From Ricordea florida (lineage: Eukaryota; Cnidaria; Anthozoa; Corallimorpharia; Ricordeidae): a DNA stretch of 64,000 bases. The notes beneath the pieces are model-generated. The model ran no database searches and was not told the DNA's origin. It was given only the letters and a program-made list of their open reading frames with translations. The position numbers and the translations under genes are program-made. The stretch lies in the NCBI GenBank assembly GCA_949710005.1, contig OX453285.1:6483132-6547131 (forward strand). The letters are read 5' to 3'. Positions 19,301 to 45,714 of the stretch are shown here, piece after piece. Position 1 is the stretch's first letter. Every line of letters starts with the position of its first letter.

Positions 19301-22300
19301 TAAATGCAAGAATTATATTGCAGTATGACTCATATAGTTTTGCAATAGGAGGAAAGGCTTGAAATTAAAGCTGCATTTTGTGACTTACGGAGTTAAAACT
19401 TAGAACCACATTGTGTGACTACAGGTTTGACTCACGGGATATGTAAGACACAAGACTTTTATTACGTAGCTATGCGACAAAGTGAACAGTTTTCGCCTTA
19501 CCAAGCGGTACAAGCTCCTTTACGTAATCCTTCAAACTTTTTTTATTGATGGGTGTTGCCAGTGCTAACCGCTCACTGTAGCACAAACTTCTCCCTCCTA
19601 TCCCACCCGGGGTAGAGGCTTCTGTGTTGAATGACACTATGCCAACCTAAAAGAAATAATGCTGTTAGTGAGGTCGGATTTTCTAAGGCGGAGACATAAG
19701 TCAATCGCAATGCAAGTTCTCAGGTGTCGTGATTGGTTTATTCTTCTACTTCTGCTTGAGACTTCAAAAAATTATCTTTCAGTGGATAATAGGTGACGAG
19801 CCATCAGAAGCGGAATCGGAAAGCTCCGATTTTCTACTTCGTGGGTGTAGCCTTTTGCCAATTGTGCTCAAAAAATTGCTGTACTATAAATGCATCTAGC
19901 AGTGCTGAGAATTTTTGTAAATTACACTGAAGTTATAAATTTTGTCAATATTTTTATTTCACGAAGACCAGAAAAGCCAGATTTATTATGCCGGCAGTGC
20001 TACTTTCAGATAAAAAGCAAAAAGATTATGTTGGGGCGGCTATGTTATTCCAAAAGTTATGCCAATGTGAAAATCGACAAAGGTTTAGTGTAGATCAAAT
20101 CGTGACGTTACCTCAGTAGCGCCGGCCAAAACTGTGGAATCTGCTATCAGAGTCACACAGAGCTCTTGGAGCTTTTAAGGCCTTCAAAAACGTGTAAAAA
20201 AATTTGAATTTTTTTTTAACCTCATTCTGTACTTGTTGTTATAATGTTGTTTGCGAGTGCGATCATCGTTTTGGCCTCTCAGCATAACGTGTATCTAATC
20301 TTAATTTATGTGGAATACCTGTAAAATAGCTAGTGTGTCATTTCATTATGTAAAGTCACAATACAACTGAAGAGCTAAGCGTAAGATACACTAAACTTGT
20401 ATTGTTGTTGTTGTTGTTGTTGAAATCGTTCGCCTTCTCCGATTACAACCCCAACTCCGACTCCGTCACTAGTAATTATTACGACCAGTGTATAAAAACG
20501 CTCACCTTGTCCTTTGGATTCATAGTGTCCAAAACGGTATTAGCAGCTTCAACAGCAAACACCATATTGTCTCCAGCCATTGATGAACTGGTATCAATGA
20601 CCAACACGACATCTTTAGCTTCAGGTGTGGCTGTCTCCACGTAAAAAGGTCTGTAGCGAGGATCGTACACACCACACTCTACCGTGTCATCAAACAGAGG
20701 AAAGTTGGTCAGGAGTCCTTGTTCAGAGCCAAAATATTGCCACTTGATGAAGGGATGCTTGTTAGAAATGTCCTTCATGGTATTAAGGACATCGCTGTGT
20801 AAGTGTATTGGATTGGGAGGGGCACTTCCCGAGATCTTTACACACCATTTAGTCATGTCAACTTTTGAACGAAATCGAGCATCATATTTGAGTGTGGATT
20901 TGTCACTTTTGCAGCATTCCGTAACAGCAGAAGGGGTCATTGACTTGGCGTAAGAAGCTTCTACAGCCTCTCTAAGTTCCCGTGCCACAGCGTAACGTTC
21001 CTTGAATTTCTCGGCGAGCTTAACTGCTATATCTTGAGTAATACCCTGCCCTTGAATATCTGCCTCGTGGTAATGCAGATCGTTCAAATATTGCTGCCGG
21101 TAAGATAAGAAAGTTATTTATCTAGTAAATTTGTCTACAGAAAAGCTATCGAATAAGGAAACGCAATGACTACAACTAATTCATCCGAGTCAAACCACGG
21201 TTATTAACGTGTGATGTTCAGCCAGTTAGACCACTGTTATTAACGTGTGATGTTCAGTCAAGTTAATCCACTGTTAGTAACATGTGATTTTCAGTCCAAT
21301 CAAACCACTGTTAGTAATATGTGATGTTCAGCCAGTTAAACCACTGTTAGTAACATGTGATGTTCAGTTCAGTCAAACCACTGTTAGTAACATGTGATGT
21401 TTAGTCCAATCAAACCACTGCTAGTAACATGTGATGTTCAGTCCAGTCAAACCACTGTTAGTTACATGTGATGTTCAGTCCAGTCAAATCACTGTTAGTA
21501 ACATGTGATGTTCAGTCCAGTCAAACCACTGTTAGTAACATGTGATGTGTAGACCAGTCAAACCACTGTTAGTAACATGTGATGTTCAGTCCAGTCAAAA
21601 CACTGTTAGTAACATGTGATGTTCAGTCCAGTCAAACCACTGTTAGTAACACGTGATGTTCAGTCAAACCACTGTTAGTAACATGTGATGTTCAGTGCAG
21701 TCAAACCACTGTTAGTAACATGTGATGTTCAGTGCAGTCAAACCACTGTTAGTAACATGTGATGTTCAGTGCAGTCAAACCACTGTTAGTAACATGTGAT
21801 GTTCAGTCCAGTCAAACCACTGTTAGTAACATGTGATGTTCAGTCCAGTCAAACCACTGTTAGTAACATGTGATATTCAGTCGAGTCAAACCACTGTTAG
21901 TAACATGTGATGTTCAGTCCAGTCAAACCACTGTTAGTAACATGTGATGTTCAGTTCAGTCAAACCACTGTTAGTAACATGTGATGTTCAGTCATATCAA
22001 ACCACGGTTAGTAACGTGTAAATTAAACTACATAGTATAACAATGAAGTTAAAATAGGGGTTATGGTTAGGGTTAGGGTTAACGTCTGAAATAACCTGAA
22101 GTAGTTGAAAATGCAAGGTTACCAGTTAATTACACATATATCACAGTTTGTGGTCTATAACTAACATATATGGTGGCCCATTTGGGCCATAGCGTTTTTT
22201 TTATATCTTTCAAATTTTTTTTTTTTAGGTTTTGGTTTCTTTTCCTTTTATTATTCTCTCTTTTTAATTTTTTGTTTATTTTATTTACTTAGTTATATTT

Positions 22301-25300
22301 TCAAACTGTAATTATTTTTCAAAAAAAAACAATCAATAAAAAAACATTAAAAAATTTACTGGCAGCTGAAGTCCATGTGAAACAACGCACGCCATTTTGA
22401 ATAATTCTACTGGAACAATGAATTAGGTTAGTCCATTTGGGTAGTCCATGGATTGGGAGTCGGTGTTTTGTCCATCAACCGATAGTTGCGGAAAAAAATA
22501 GAATTGAATTATACTTAGATTTTTCACATACCTTTAATTTTTTAGATTGATAACCCAGACATAGAGTTGTAACTTTTTTTTAATCCCCTGTGACTTCTGG
22601 CCGCTTCCAAAAATGTTCCCTTATTTTTTAAATTAAGTACATTTTTCTTAACATTTCGTGAATAGACCTGGCAAGTTTCTGCGCGGTTTTATGACATCCA
22701 TTTGTTTTCAGTACGGTCCAGTATTTTCGGTTCAATATTTGGCGGCAAGTCTATGGTGGCCCATTAGGGCCATAGCGTTTTTTTTTTATCTTTCAAATTT
22801 TTTTTTTTTAGGTTTTGGTTTCTTTTCCTTTTCTTTTTCTCTCTTTGTAATTTTATGTTTATTTTATTTACTTAGTTATATTTTCAAACTGTAATTATTT
22901 TTCAAAAAAAAAAAACAATCAATAAAAAAACATTAAAAAATTTACTTAGAAATTATAAAAAAAATTTGCACGTGGCCCATGAGGGCCATAAGCCCACAGA
23001 GGCCATAGCCCATCAGGCATTTCGACTCTAGGTATCGCCAATGCATTCTGGGATAGTAATTGTTTTTGTGCCATGTGCCTAACATTATCGGTGATTCTAC
23101 GAAATGTCGAAGCGGAAAAAGGAGGATTGGGATGCGTTTAGAGCGAGAGTGGGCAAGAAAAGAGCAGGTAACAGCAAGACAGAGTCAAATGGATTTTAAT
23201 TTCTAACATTTCAACGCCTTTCCTCATCCGTTGAAGGCAAGTGCCAAAAATATTCACGTATCGGTGCACTGACCTTGGTTCCCCTCGATTGCGAAGCCAC
23301 ACTCTAAAATATTAAAGAAGCATGCAAAGAAACACTTCCAGCTTACCGATATGGAGTGTGATTTGCTTGCTGGTGAGAGGGGACCATCTTACACCGACAC
23401 AAGCCAAATAAAGAATTGGAAATTGCTTCACATCAGATTTATCGAACCTGGTACTGCAATGCCAGATGCCCCGAATCGACGGCGTGATCGGCTTGACGAA
23501 TTTCCTCAGTCAGCACCCACGAGCCCAAGCAAGTCTGTGAGAGTAGAAGGTATAAAGGTAAGATTTCCGCACAGTTCCCTACTTCATTATGCATGCTGAA
23601 GCTGTCTTGTCTGGTGTAATGCACGTGCAAATATTTCTTGTGTTCGAAGAACGAAATAATATAGTTACAGAATGCATAATGAAGTAGGGACCTGTGCGGA
23701 AATCTTACTTTTATACCTTCTACTCTCACAGACTTGCTTGGGCTCGCGGGTGCTGACTGAGGAAATTCGTCAAGCCGATCACGCCGTCGATTTGGGGCAT
23801 CTGGCATTGCAGCACTAGGTTCGATAAATCTGATGAGAAGCAATTTCCAATTCTTTATTTGGCTTGTGTCGGTGTAAGATGGTCCCCTCTCACCAGCAAG
23901 CAAATCACACTCCATATCGGTAAGCTGGAAGTGTTTTTTTTGCATGCTTCTTTAATATTTTGGAGTGTGGCTTCGCAATCGAGGGGAACCAAGGTCAGTG
24001 CACCGATACGTGAATATTTTTGGCACTTGCCTTCAACAGATGAGGAAAGGCGTTGAAATGTTAGAAATTAAAATCCATTTGACTCTGTTCTGCTGTTACC
24101 TGCTCTTTTCTTGCCCACTCTCGCTCTAAACGCATCCCAATCCTCCTTTTTCCGCTTCGACATTTCGTAGAATCACCGATAATGTTAGGCACATGGCACA
24201 AAAACAATTACTATCCCAGAATGCATTGGCGATACCTAGAGTCGAAATGCCTGATGGGCTATGGCCTCTGTGGGCTTATGGCCCTCATGGGCCACGTGCA
24301 AATTTTTTTTATAACTTCTAAGTAAATTTTTTAATGTTTTTTTATTGATTGTTTTTTTTTTTTGAAAAATAATTACAGTTTGAAAATATAACTAAGTAAA
24401 TAAAATAAACATAAAATTACAAAGAGAGAAAAAGAAAAGGAAAAGAAACCAAAACCTAAAAAAAAAATTTGAAAGATATAAAAAAAACGCTATGGCCCTA
24501 ATGGGCCACCATAGACTTGCCGCCAAATATTGAACCGAAAATACTGGACTGTACTGAAAACAAATGGATGTCATAAAACCGCGCAGAAACTTGCCAGGTC
24601 TATTCACGAAATGTTAAGAAAAATGTACTTAATTTAAAAAATAAGGGAACATTTTTGGAAGCGGCCAGAAGTCACAGGGGATTAAAAAAAAGTTACAACT
24701 CTATGTCTGGGTTATCAATCTAAAAAATTAAAGGTATGTGAAAAATCTAAGTATAATTCAATTCTATTTTTTTCCGCAACTATCGGTTGATGGACAAAAC
24801 ACCGACTCCCAATCCATGGACTACCCAAATGGACTAACCTAATTCATTGTTCCAGTAGAATTATTCAAAATGGCGTGCGTTGTTTCACATGGACTTCAGC
24901 TGCCATTCTGAATAATTATAATGGAACAGGAGCGAATGATCTGCTCCTGAATGGAACAATGAATTTGGGTAGTCCATTTGGGTTAACAGATAGTGACCAT
25001 GGGTAACCATGCCTAATAGACCAGTGCATCCTACGGAAATTACCCTAGGCGTTTCATTTATTTATTAGAGACTTTATAAAGCGACGGCGGAAGGGTTTGA
25101 CAACGGCTTTCGCGACCTAAAGAAACTGGAACGACAACCTCTATCTGTCGAGTGTCAAGTTACGTTACGCAACAGTGGTTTTCAGGACGGTGTTCTGTTC
25201 TTTTGGCACGAAATGCAAAACACAGTTCTAGGTCTAGAGCTACATTTCAGTTATCGGCCTGTTACGTTTTATTTGTAAAACTATTGATTTTAAAACCAGG

Positions 25301-26364: not shown

Positions 26365-29300
26365 TTCTATTTAGGTTAGTTACGTATGTAGACGACCATG
26401 TAGCGTTACAGTCGGTGATATAAGGATAAATTAGTCAGTAGTACAAGGTGAGTTTAGTTTTTAAAGATAGACAAAACCGGGACCTGAATAGCATTCCAAT
26501 TGAATTAGACATTTGCTTAAATAAATAGCTAATATGATCTTTCCAAGTAAGGTGCTCGTTAATGCCGTATACTCCAAGAAATTTACTGGCGTTGGTTTGT
26601 GTTAAGAGTTGACCCCATAAGAGATAGAGAAATCGTGGTTACATTTCTTCTGCCAAGGTTTGAGAATGAGATAGGTCGTTTTCTTTACATTAACCTATGA
26701 TTTTTTTAAATCTTAGCCAAACTTCAATTCTTTTCTAGTTCGTTATTTAGTACAGATTCTAAGGTGTATGGGTTAGATGCTAGTATCGTCCGACAAAGAG
26801 GAGACGCTCCCCACCAATTCTATAGCGTTTGGGAGATCGTTTATGTAGAGTATGAAAAATAAAGAAACAGGAATGGAACCTTGTGGTACACCTGCAATAT
26901 TATGGTCTGCATCGGAGAACCGGTTTGATGGAATTGAGCAAATTGATAACCATAGGAAAAGTAGCTTTTTATCCACTGCAAAGCCGCACCACGACGGAGA
27001 CCATAATGTTCCAGCTTGTTGAATAAAATTCCATGATCAAGGGTATCGAACGCCTTAGAAGAAACCAGAAAGATACCTACAGTTGTTTCATGTTGGTGAA
27101 TTGCTGAAGGGATTTTATTAAGCAAATAGATTAGCGCGCGTGATGTCAAGTGATTTTTACGAAATCCAAACTGACGGAGATAGAGTATTTCGTTTGTTTC
27201 GGCAAATTCGACTTAGCGATTGTACAAGACCTTTTCAAAGAATTTTGAGAAATTTGGTGGCAAAGAGATTAGTCTGTAATTTACAAAAAGACTCGAATCC
27301 TCTGTTTTGTAGATATGAATTACTTTACCAATTTTTAGTATATCTGGGAAAATGCCTTTCAATAAAGAAAGATTTATAATGTTTGCCAGAAGTGCAGAGA
27401 TCAAGTAAAATGAATGCTTTTATCACCCGCATAGAAATATTGTCATAACCAGGGGCCTTTCTTGGCGTAAACAAGCTACAGATATTTTCCAATTCACTAG
27501 TGTCGGTAGGTTCTAGAACGATGCGAAGGTAATCTCTGCTACCAAGAGATGAGCGAAAAGTGGTCGAATCCACGGTGGGAATAGCACTCGCTAGGTTAGG
27601 ACCAATACTGGTAAAGTATTTACAGAATCTGTCAGCGATGTCCTTGGGATCCGTGATTACTTTGCTGTAGGATTTAAATGAGGAGGGTGGAGATGGATTA
27701 ATCTTACGTTTGTTTATAACCTCGTTTAATAGTCTCCATGTTGTTCTGAGGTCATTTTTGGCAACTTCTAATTTGGAGTCGTAATATGTAAGCTTAGCAA
27801 TACGTATTAAGCAGTTCAATTTTGTTTCTGTATTTCAGCTCTCAGGAAGTGGTAGGTGATTGAACGAGTTTTTTGTGCAGTCTGTTCTTCTTGTTAATGG
27901 ACTTTAAGAGACCACGGCTCAGTCATGGAGAGTAGAACTTCTTCATTTGCTTACTTCTGACATAAAAAGTAAAACAGGTCTCATAAATTCTGGTAAATTC
28001 ACTTATAAAATCATTGTAAGCTTCGCTGGGGTCGTTCTCTTTAATAATTAAAGACCAATTTGTAATTGAAAGGTTTTTGTTAATTTTTTTTCCAAATTAA
28101 TAACATTGATTTCGTGAGTAAGAATTTTCAGGGTGTCGTTACCAAAGTAAGTCAAAACCGGTAAGTGATCAGACAAATCATTTAGAACGATGCCAATGAA
28201 AACATTTTGCAATATGTTGTTCGTGAATATGTTATCAATTAGTGTTGCAGAGTAGCAAGTGAGGCGAGTCGGTTTTGAAATAAGAGGCAAAAATGCGTGC
28301 GAAAATAAGCTGTCAATAAAATTAATTCCTGTGTTGGTATGTGGTGGTTATACTGAAGAAGGTCTAAATTAAAATCTCCCATCACATAAGAGTGTTAATT
28401 GTCTTTAGTGATAATTGAAAGAATGTCATTCAATTTCTCTAGAAAAAGGGCAGTGTTTTGATTTGGCAGTCTGTAAACAATACCGACAATAATGTTTTTC
28501 CCTTGGGGAACAATGATTTTGACAAAAATTGATCAATTAATTCTGAGTCAAAAAATTTGCATTCTTTGATAATTATGTATTCAATATTGTTTTGTAAATA
28601 AATGCCAACTCCGCCGCCTGTTTTTCCTTTTACGATGGTTGGAGACAAAATTGTATCCTACGATATTTACAAGCTCTGAAGTGGATTCAGTAAGCCACGT
28701 TTCTGACCCGCCGAGAACAGAGAATGTCCTTTTGAGATTTTGAGTGTAAAATTTAGTAGATCAAGATTTTTTAACAAACTGCAGTCATTTAAATGCAGAA
28801 CGAAAAACATCGAATTCTCATTAAAGGAACTAACCTGATCATTAATATCTTCCTCCACCATATATCTACTGGTCGGTAGACGAGTAAGGAAGTTTGAGTC
28901 GGGATTAAGATTATTTGAGAATGGATCAAATAATCCAGGCTAGTGTATAGGATGATATAAGAGCGATTCAATGCAATCACTGTTATAATTTAAAGTGCCA
29001 CGAGACATTTCGTAAAGTGCTATGTTGAAAGAATTAGAGTCTAAATTATTATTAGTCATTTTGGTAAGATTTCCGCACTGGTCCCTACTCATTATGCATG
29101 CTGTAGTTGAATTGTCTTGGGAAGTGCGCGTGCAAACATTTCTGAGAACAAAACCGTACGGCTACAGCATGCATAATGAAGTAGGGACCTGTGCTGAAAT
29201 CTTCCCGTCATTTTTCCGTAAAATTGGAGAGTGTTCAATGCTTCGATCATCTTTCGTGATTGAACAGGTTGGTTCGCCGCCATTACCAGACCCCTGTGCA

Positions 29301-42997: not shown

Positions 42998-43034
<37 letters not shown>
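42998..43034. repeat. (TA)n microsatellite
   Basis: TA tract joining two PLE-derived inverted structures. Confidence 0.95.
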
Positions 43035-43037
<3 letters not shown>

Positions 43038-43880
43038 GTACAGTCTCTCTTGCTAGGAGATTTTGTCTAGATCCTGCCTGCTTCCCATCTCTCATATTGG
43101 AGCCTCCCTTGCGGTTTCGCACTGGAAATTAAGGATGGACACCCGAAGGCCTGTGAGCACTTATGGTTAGGTGTCGATCCAGCCGTCTCAAACCTAAACA
43201 AGCCATTTCCCGGACCGGTTTCGACTTTAATGTCTTCTTCAGCGGGATTTTATAGTTTTAGCTTGTCCGGTCGCTATCGCGCCGTTGGACGTAATGCATT
43301 AACATATGTGGTCACTTACTTATATACTCTTGTGTTCAAATTACAACTATTGCGTCGTTATTGCGTCAACTAATTGCTTAACAAGTTCTTATTTTTTCGA
43401 GTTCTTGTTTTGATCCTAACAATTATATCTATTACGTCGATGTTTCGTCATTTAATCGGTTAACAAGCAAGTCTTTTTTCATGTCCTTGTTTTGATGTTA
43501 ACAACAATTACGTCTGTTGCATACGAACTTCCTCAATTTATTGCTTAATTACTGGTTCTTTTCTGCGAGTGCACTCGTTTAGAGTATATAAGTAAGTGAC
43601 CACATATGTTAATGCATTACGTCCAACGGCGCGATAGCGACCGGACAAGCTGAAACTGTAAAATCCCGCTGAAGAAGACATTAAAGTCGAAACCGGTCCG
43701 GGAAATGGCTTGTTTAGGTTTGAGACGGCTGGATCGACACCTAACCATAAGTGCTCACAGGCCTTCAGGTGTCCATCCTTAATTTCCAGTGCGAAACCGC
43801 AAGGGAGGTTCCAATATGAGAGATGGGAAGCAGGCAGGATCTAGACAAAATCTCCTAGCAAGAGAGACTGTACAAATTAT
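43031..43880. mobile_element. PLE-derived inverted repeat (300-bp arms)
   Basis: Arms 43031-43330 and 43581-43880 are near-identical inverted copies around a 250-bp spacer. Each arm carries CCGCTGAAGAAGACATTAAA and GTCGAAACCGG, a PLE-type 3' hairpin, oriented outward toward (TA)n. The open frames in the arms (RNRKGGSNMRDGKQAG) are shared by both copies but unrecognised. Confidence 0.75.
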
Positions 43881-43898
43881 ATATATATATATATATAT
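43878..43898. repeat. (TA)n microsatellite
   Basis: Short TA tract between the 300-bp inverted element and the RT-bearing PLE. Confidence 0.9.
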
Positions 43899-45556
43899 AG
43901 TTGTTGCGGGAGAAAAAAACACACAAACAAACTACAGGTTTATCCCTACAAGCTTGTTTCGTGGTTGCCCACTCGTAAGGGGATTTGGTAGGAATGTCCT
44001 TTACCATCTCTTATATACAAAATAGTTAAATTTACATAATAATAGAGATCGTTAAGTTTCAGGTCTTGCGTAAGAGGGTTTTGTTTCTGTGGCGGCAAGA
44101 AGACACAAGCTCATTACGTTTGTTTAGCGTGGATAGTTCGGGTCGGCAGATGATTAGGAATTTTTCTTTGAGGCAGAGGTTACATCTTTTGCTTGAGCTG
44201 TTATATGGCGAGTGTGAAGACAGGATCCGCCAGGAAATAAAGTGTTCAATGTTGTTGTCTTTAAGGGTTCATATGTGTTTGCTGAGCTCGGTGGAGTTTC
44301 TGTGTTTAGCGTGGCGGAAAGATGCGGTGTGGTTTCTGTATCTTGTTTTGAAGTCGTTTTCCGTATGTCCGATGTAGGTTTGGGACGTGTTGTTGTCTTT
44401 GCGCGTAACGGTGGCTTGGTAGATTACCGATGGTTGTAGGCAGTTTCCGTTGAGCGGGCAATTGTTCTTTTGTCGGCAGTTGCATGTCTTTCTTTCTTTA
44501 GTGTTAGCGGCGGCAGCATCGTTGGTTTGTGTAGATGTGGTTAAGATGCGTTTATTATGGTTGTCGATTATTTGTTTAGTGTTGTTCATGCAGCTGTAAC
44601 TGATCTTGATGGTGTTGCGGTTGAAGATTTTACGGAGCTCGTGGTCTTTTGGGAAGTGCTTATCTATTAGGGCGAGGAATTTGTGTTCGATGTTAGTACT
44701 TGTGTTCTTGCTGAAAGGGGGGTTGTACCACAGGATGTTACTGCGTTGACGGTTTTCTCGCTTGTTAGGTGTGGCTGGTTCGTAGTGTAGGGTGTAGCTG
44801 TATCCGCTTTCGTCGAGTGCTTTCTGGTATGAGGGGGCGGCTTGGTCAAAGGATGCTTTGTCGGATGATAGGGATGATAGTCGTTTGTTGATGCCAGCGG
44901 GAATGTTCTTTGTAGTGATTGGCGGGTGGTTGCTCTCGCGGTGGACGTACTGCAGTGTCGTATTTGGCTTTGTGAAGGGCTTATAGGTGTTTTGGTTGAG
45001 GTTGAATGTGACATCCAGGAAGTTAATTATCTGCTTGTTAGCTTCTATGGTAATGCGTAGTCCGTTATTTTTAAAGACACGGCATATTTCTTTCTTGATG
45101 TTTTCTGTGTCTGTAGGTGTGGTGTTAGTGGTCGCGAGTCCGTCGTCTAAGTAAAGTCCTACGTTAATATTAAGGTGTTGCAGCTGGGATAGGAGAAAAC
45201 TTCCTACAAGCTCGCATGTTTCCGCGCCGTCGTAGCTGCCCATTGTGACGTCAAATGCTGCGTTGCCTTTCTTTTGCCAGGGTTGTTTCTTGTGGATTAG
45301 GATGGAACTTTTAGCATGGATTGTCTGCTAAACAAACGTAATGAGCTTGTGTCTTCTTGCCGCCACAGAAACAAAACCCTCTTACGCAAGACCTGAAACT
45401 TAACGATCTCTATTATTATGTAAATTTAGCTATTTTGTATATAAGCGATGGTAAAGGACATTCCTACCAAATCCCCTGACGAGTGGGCAACCACGAAACA
45501 GGCTTGTAGGGATAAACCTGTAGTTTGTTTGTGTGTTTTTTTCTCCCGCAACAACT
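43899..45556 (-). mobile_element. PLE with 230-bp inverted terminal repeats
   Basis: ITRs 43899-44128 and 45327-45556 start AGTTGTTGCGGGAGAAAAAA. Between them a minus-strand frame encodes the end of RT and a GIY-YIG domain. The ORF end extends into the left ITR. The RT N-terminal part is absent, so this is a 5'-truncated copy. Confidence 0.85.
44059..45325 (-). pseudogene. PLE RT C-terminus plus GIY-YIG endonuclease (internal stop)
   Basis: The frame opens at about 45325 with FDVTMGSYDGAE, CELVGSFLLSQLQHL and the RT catalytic box GLYLDDGLATT. It continues with INFLDVTFNLNQNTYKPFTK, SNHPPITTKNIPAG and QTYIGHTENDFKTRYRNH (GIY-YIG part), followed by TELSKHI. A TGA at 44269-44271 falls where the family usually has Trp. 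The frame then continues to 44059 through ISWRILSS, CNLCLKEKFLI, LNKRNELVSSCRH and a normal stop. One stop aside, the sequence is well preserved. Confidence 0.85.
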
Positions 45557-45714
45557 ACTTCGCTCTACGTTCACGTATTGAGCACTGTTTTACGATTAAT
45601 CAACTTTTACACTTTATATATGTATATATATATGAAAAAGAAAAAAATAAGCCTGTTTTCCATGAATGCCGTGCCTCACTTGATATTGTAATAACTCAGG
45701 CTGTGTAAAAGTGA

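What the first reader, a model, noticed from the sequence alone, without database searches (positions are those of the whole stretch)
22361..24904. A 2.5-kb near-perfect palindrome centred on a hairpin transposon
Arms of about 1.24 kb are inverted copies around a ~70-bp spacer. The spacer and inner flanks resemble a stand-alone hairpin element at 29066-29203 in both stem and loop. This suggests that a short hairpin element templated the palindrome, for example by fold-back priming or hairpin-capped break repair, turning adjacent single-copy DNA into a giant inverted repeat. A pre-existing short inverted repeat is known to seed large palindromes in other eukaryotes. A natural example with the seed still visible is unusual.
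Basis: partly seen in the sequence, partly recalled or inferred. Interest (0 to 1): 0.75.

Follow-up and report, generated by a model that had tools for sequence, protein, structure and literature searches.

The report
Large palindrome grown from a hairpin
In what looks like an anthozoan (coral or sea-anemone) genome, a small hairpin-shaped mobile element appears to have acted as a turning point for DNA copying, giving a 2.5-kb mirror-image sequence that also copied neighbouring DNA; the likely start, direction and stop of the copying can still be read.

Summary
The palindrome is real (22360-24905, 97.3% over the self-alignment). Its centre is one full hairpin MITE (23557-23709). About 800 bp of each arm is not single-copy: it is the 5' part of a dispersed 8-bp-TSD transposon ("E"). 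About 390 bp of flank ("B") beyond E's end is mirrored too; B186-389 was found only in the two arms. Polarity is readable. The right edge lies inside a second hairpin MITE ("BH") whose other copies (9 listed) and a segmental-duplication paralog run straight across it, so it is old. The left edge matched nowhere else: it cuts BH 3-4 nt into its second stem and joins it to a truncated E end. So the left arm is the copy. Best explanation: fold-back copying from the hairpin centre, then end joining, probably in two rounds. The inner 380 bp of the arms differ (10/380) almost as much as separate E copies do; the next 224 bp do not differ at all. Four other loci hold E inverted around this MITE, so the inner part may be an older foldback form of E. 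Not shown: reads, the progenitor, matching target sites for the left E remnant. The paralog reads 5000 N at the equivalent place.

The parts
22361..24904 (.). whole palindrome (arms 22361-23556 and 23710-24904 around the hairpin MITE)
   Evidence: self-blastn 22360-24905, 97.26% over 2554 columns; arm alignment
23557..23709 (+). central hairpin MITE, GGTAAG...CTTAC(C/T); free copies elsewhere have 8-bp target-site duplications
   Evidence: 13 of 16 free copies with a TSD match of at least 7 of 8, best of several end positions; position 103 is A in the window and 5 of 5 E-borne copies scored, G in 16 of 16 free copies
22753..23556 (+). left arm, transposon E 5' part: terminal inverted repeat and N-terminal exons of the alpha-kinase gene, up to the MITE
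   Evidence: genome matches; alignment; Pfam of the intact copy L012
23710..24512 (-). right arm, the same E 5' part, inverted (read here as the template arm)
22361..22752 (+). left copy of flank B: 22361 to about 22480 is half of hairpin MITE BH (stem 1, loop, 3 nt of stem 2); 22546-22749 (B186-389) found only in the two arms
   Evidence: 40 of 356 candidates scored
24513..24904 (-). right copy of flank B (one substitution in 389 bp against the left copy)
24785..24983 (+). second hairpin MITE BH, continuous across the right palindrome edge (stem 1, 27-nt loop, stem 2 from 24902); its far end is diverged
22170..22360 (+). A: truncated E terminal inverted repeat abutting the left edge; left side of the new junction
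   Evidence: 22169-22360 to 22752-22946, 95.4%
22360..22361 (.). junction not found elsewhere: E end joined to the BH loop/stem 2 edge, 1 bp shared by both sides
   Evidence: of 101 places listed only the window itself continues across it (40 of 2013 candidates scored)

Best explanation
A hairpin MITE inserted once into transposon E, and MITE-bearing E copies spread. Fold-back copying then made the palindrome, probably in two rounds. First, an inverted E arm formed around the MITE (here or in an ancestor copy). Later, a break on the left side exposed a single strand whose 3' end snapped back on the MITE hairpin or on the E palindrome around it and primed synthesis. The last round copied the right arm outward from somewhere between about 22950 and 23176 (left-arm coordinates): the rest of E, E's end and about 390 bp of flank B. 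It crossed the first stem and loop of a second hairpin MITE (BH), ended 3-4 nt into BH's second stem, and the new end was joined, with 1 bp shared, to a broken E end (A). Shown by sequence: MITE inside E with the empty site known, old right edge, left edge found only here, one full MITE as spacer, flank mirrored beyond E's end, two zones of different arm divergence. Inferred: the break, the fold-back, the polymerase, the joining, and the number of rounds.
For: Intact E copies L012 and L013 read GGTATAAA|TCCCCCC with no MITE; 7 of 15 other E loci fetched plus the window carry the MITE exactly there. The central MITE shares a base with 5 of 5 scored E-borne copies and 0 of 16 free ones. Right edge: 9 other BH copies align continuously through it, and paralog C14:6581163-6581711 is colinear at 93% (40 of 450 candidates scored). 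Left edge: no other of 101 listed places continues across it. Bases flanking the mirrored E (GCAAGTCT | AGACTTGC) are reverse complements, not a direct repeat, so E did not insert into a ready-made B palindrome. Arm divergence: inner 380 bp 10/380; next 224 bp 0/224, where other E copies differ from these arms by 2.2-9.4%; E-end zone 2/201, where others differ by 9.5-25.5%. E ends of the two arms differ at 1 of 195 sites but from A at 14 of 194 and 13 of 192 (gaps ignored). Precedent: fold-back priming at breaks near inverted repeats (PMC10622511, abstract and first part of Discussion read), foldback synthesis with the other end captured by end joining (PMC11724301, abstract).
Against: If A is the left end of the same E insertion, its 8-bp target site should match the right end's; TAACATAT and AGACTTGC agree at 3 of 8. 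No non-inverted E-MITE progenitor was seen among the 8 MITE-bearing E loci (3 of them truncated in the MITE). Both arms share private changes in the old inner zone too (23209, 23211, 23301, 23460), which a plain inherited foldback form does not explain without homogenisation or formation at this place. Small numbers: 14 substitutions in all. In the paralog the corresponding stretch is 5000 N, so the palindrome may be older than the duplication and its outer arms kept alike by conversion.
Confidence: 0.62

Rival explanations
1. One round only: a plain E-MITE copy beside B folded back on the MITE once, making the whole 1.2-kb arms; later arm-to-arm conversion made the outer part look younger.
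For: Both arms share changes private to this copy over most of their length, some near the centre (19 columns, some in alignment-sensitive homopolymer sequence).
Against: The inner arms differ by 10/380 (2.6%), close to the 2-5% mostly seen between separate E copies there, while 224 bp further out differ by 0; E inverted around the MITE exists at L009, L016, L017, L018.
Confidence: 0.2
2. The palindrome (with B arms) is old, shared with the paralog, and conversion between arms keeps the outer part identical.
For: The paralog has exactly 5000 N ending beside B position 185, as an assembly might break inside a palindrome.
Against: The stretch may also be an ordinary gap or withheld; nothing there can be read. 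In L010, another copy with inverted E arms, the arms differ by 6.3%, no less than different copies.
Confidence: 0.1
3. The whole 2.5 kb is a foldback transposon that inserted as a unit.
For: Palindromic shape; foldback-type E derivatives exist.
Against: B186-389 found only in the two arms; no direct repeat flanks 22361-24904 (AATTTACT against ATTCTGAA, read by eye); right edge continuous in 9 other BH copies.
Confidence: 0.03
4. Assembly or library artefact (a read folded on itself).
For: No reads could be inspected; a paralogous stretch nearby is 5000 N.
Against: Of the polarised substitutions in E, 6 are private to each arm, and MITE-centred inverted E recurs at other loci; a folded read would give identical arms. 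The B arms alone differ at only one base.
Confidence: 0.05

Closest known systems
Fold-back inverted duplications at breaks near short inverted repeats (yeast, PMC10622511: abstract and first part of Discussion read; human, PMC3907307: abstract read)
   Same: short inverted repeat at the centre, single-copy spacer, inverted copy of flanking DNA
   Different: here the seed is a whole hairpin transposon and the product is interstitial, about 1.2 kb per arm, in a natural genome
Templated inverted insertions at breaks (PMC11724301, abstract read)
   Same: one end made by fold-back synthesis, the other captured by end joining
   Different: those are described as mostly about 5-34 bp; this is about 1.2 kb and runs from one hairpin element into another
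Foldback-like TIR extension in Galileo (PMC4168063, abstract and one Discussion section read)
   Same: long inverted arms that recruit internal transposon sequence, even other inserted TEs, into the terminal repeats
   Different: here the mirrored DNA continues past the transposon end into flank found only in these two arms
Arm homogenisation by template switching between inverted repeats (PMC8604942, abstract read)
   Same: could explain nearly identical outer arms
   Different: acts on existing short repeats; it does not create new arms

Membership tests
fold-back inverted duplication | inverted repeat at the centre that pre-dates the duplication | tested here: met
   full MITE at centre, same insertion point and diagnostic base in other E copies
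fold-back inverted duplication | one edge ancestral, one new junction | tested here: met
   right edge continuous in 9 other BH copies and in the paralog; left edge only in the window (scored candidates only)
fold-back inverted duplication | single-copy progenitor of one arm ending at the seed | tested here: inconclusive
   intact E without MITE found (L012, L013); no E-MITE copy with the original far side among 8 loci; the planned genome-wide pattern search did not complete
foldback transposon (whole 2.5 kb) | same unit at several loci | tested here: not met
   B186-389 found only in the two arms (40 of 356 candidates scored)
foldback transposon (whole 2.5 kb) | target-site duplication at the unit's edges | tested here: not met
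   flanks AATTTACT and ATTCTGAA, read by eye
foldback form of transposon E (inner part) | inverted E arms around the MITE at other loci | tested here: met
   L009 (17 bp of arm), L016, L017, L018
foldback form of transposon E (inner part) | direct 8-bp TSD next to its two ends in the window | tested here: not met
   GCAAGTCT and AGACTTGC are reverse complements, as copying of the flank predicts

The most novel reading that the evidence does not exclude
Palindromes can grow in steps along a chain of hairpin transposons: a MITE hairpin seeds an inverted transposon, that palindrome seeds a larger one that captures host DNA, and copying ends at the next hairpin. A genome rich in hairpin elements would then hold a ladder of such stages, with hairpin MITEs as both start and stop signals for natural inverted duplication.
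Probability: 0.33. Interest if true: 0.75.

Novelty: new variant of a known kind. Interest (0 to 1): 0.52.

Why it matters
In the papers seen here, fold-back priming is studied in yeast and in human rearrangements, soon after the event. This natural product keeps its seed, its direction of copying and its end point, and related stages lie elsewhere in the same genome. It makes it possible to ask how often hairpin transposons, present in many copies here, create inverted duplications of neighbouring DNA, and where such copying stops.

Tried and rejected
Rejected: insertion of E into a ready-made B palindrome (flanks are reverse complements, not a direct repeat); the whole unit as a transposon (no other copy listed, no TSD). 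Not kept as certain: that A is the left end of the same E insertion (TSD 3 of 8; still possible because A shares private changes with both arms, and because its cut at the equivalent of about 22945 lies near the inner limit of the young zone). Left open: one or two rounds, conversion of outer arms. Breakage-fusion-bridge was disfavoured because the centre is one complete MITE. Hairpin capping by a transposase on excision (recalled; a hAT example is in the listing, paper not read) was rejected because the MITE is still present. A polymerase stop at BH is only suggestive: a template hairpin would be expected to block before its first stem, so folding of the new strand or later cutting at the loop may fit better; not tested. 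A scan of viral contigs gave 11 pattern matches and no confirmed relative. Free MITE L056 first scored as having inverted flanks; these are tandem-repeat units away from the MITE edge. A paper search on palindromes in coral genomes and one on alpha-kinase with transposon and cnidarian found 0 papers in that library. Corrected on checking: I first put the arms' difference at 1.5% against mostly 5-13% between copies; by zone the inner arms are almost as different as separate copies, so I moved weight from one round to two.

Full report
The window lies on contig C14 of a 538-Mb, 48-contig genome.

Observation. The inverted alignment 22360-24905 (97.26%) is real. Arms align with one substitution in the outer 389 bp and more towards the centre. 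Among substitutions that other E copies polarise, 6 are private to the left and 6 to the right arm; one more, at 23557, is private to the right arm. So the arms are not one molecule read twice.

Centre. 23557-23709 is one full hairpin MITE. Sixteen free copies were examined, chosen as strong genome matches and not at random: 13 of 16 show 8-bp TSDs with at least 7 matches, taking the best of several end positions; 4 of these share one target inside another repeat. Flank inversion is at shuffle level in 15 of 16; the other is tandem repeats away from the edge.

Arms. A genome search with 22300-23700 listed 101 places, 40 of 2013 candidates scored. 22753-23556 is the 5' part of a dispersed transposon, E: end repeats of about 280 bp, tip ATGGTGGCCC, 8-bp TSD (read by eye: L012 8 of 8; L015 and L017 7; L010 and L021 5; L009 none). 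The copy L012 carries a 400-aa ORF with an alpha-kinase domain (Pfam E 5.5e-29) and a second ORF with 188 homologues at E of 1e-5 or less. Of 15 other E loci fetched, 7 have the MITE at the same base, 2 have the empty site GGTATAAA|TCCCCCC, and 6 do not reach it. MITE position 103 is A in the window and 5 of 5 scored E-borne copies, G in 16 of 16 free copies, so one insertion into E is the simplest account.

E inverted around the MITE occurs in L009 (17 bp of inverted arm, then the end repeat), L016, L017 and L018. In L010, L011 and L023 the MITE is truncated and its far side unknown, with an inverted E arm about 2 kb further in L010. So the inner palindrome has relatives.

Age of the arms. 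Counted by zone: inner 23177-23556, arms 10/380 (2.6%), each arm against other copies mostly 3.6-4.5% (range 2.1-8.5%), other copies among themselves mostly 1-4%; next 224 bp, arms 0, against other copies 2.2-9.4%; E-end zone, arms 2/201, against other copies 9.5-25.5% in poly-T-rich, alignment-sensitive sequence. Of 14 substitutions between arms (indels and MITE stems beyond its first base not counted), 11 lie at or inside 23177 and 3 outside (Fisher p 0.0004 with the boundary chosen after seeing the data; change-point permutation p 0.008). The inner arms look almost as old as the split between E copies, the outer arms much younger. Against a simple inherited foldback form: both arms share 19 columns that differ from the consensus of the other copies, including 23209, 23211, 23301 and 23460 in the inner zone. 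In L010 the two arms differ by 6.3%, no less than different copies; in L017 by 3.2%, somewhat less.

Beyond E. The mirrored sequence runs about 390 bp past E's end. A search with 389 bp of it (73 places, 40 of 356 candidates scored) found positions 186-389 only in the two arms, and about 133-185 also in the paralog; positions 1 to about 120 are half of a second hairpin MITE, BH. In 11 of 12 BH loci aligned the sequence runs from loop to second stem as at 24904/24905, and one search lists 9 other copies continuous across that point at 80-88% identity. So the right edge is the ordinary inside of BH. On the left, BH is cut 3-4 nt into its second stem and joined to A, a truncated E end (22170-22360). 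No other listed match continues across. The left arm is therefore the copy.

A. It shares private changes with both arms but splits before them (13-14 differences in about 193 sites; arms 1 in 195). Its target site agrees with the right end's at 3 of 8. It is the left end of the same element with a lost or mismatched TSD, or of a sister copy.

Paralog. 4130-47887 is colinear with 60595-114900 in window coordinates, blocks 85-97% identical. The paralog has exactly 5000 N ending beside B position 185, where the palindrome would lie: a gap, perhaps caused by the same structure, or a withheld stretch. It leaves the age open.

Conclusion. After the zone count I moved weight from one round of copying to two, and raised the odds of the stepwise novel reading slightly (0.30 to 0.33); overall confidence in fold-back copying is unchanged.

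Noticed in passing
L012:1176-5395 (C11:15362175-15366394): Transposon E carries an alpha-kinase-domain gene next to a second ORF with 188 homologues: a DNA transposon with a kinase cargo.
   Followed up: partly
window 4130-47887 and C14 downstream (window coordinates 60595-114900): Tandem segmental duplication, blocks 85-97% identical, with an exact 5000-N stretch in copy 2 where the palindrome would be.
   Followed up: partly
window 43012-43330 / 43581-43899: Another inverted repeat, 319-bp arms 98.7% identical with about 250-bp spacer.
   Followed up: no
window 43898-44128 / 45327-45557: Inverted 231-bp repeats (98.3%) around a 324-aa ORF; looks like a Penelope-like element (recalled resemblance, no Pfam match).
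   Followed up: no
window 21180-22019: Tandem array of about 37-bp units left of the palindrome, beside an ORF with a weak VWA_N match (below the curated cut-off).
   Followed up: no
L010 against L009, L017, L023: Read from the left E arm, the MITE loop is seen in both orientations relative to E, as spacer inversion or the two arms of a palindrome would give.
   Followed up: no
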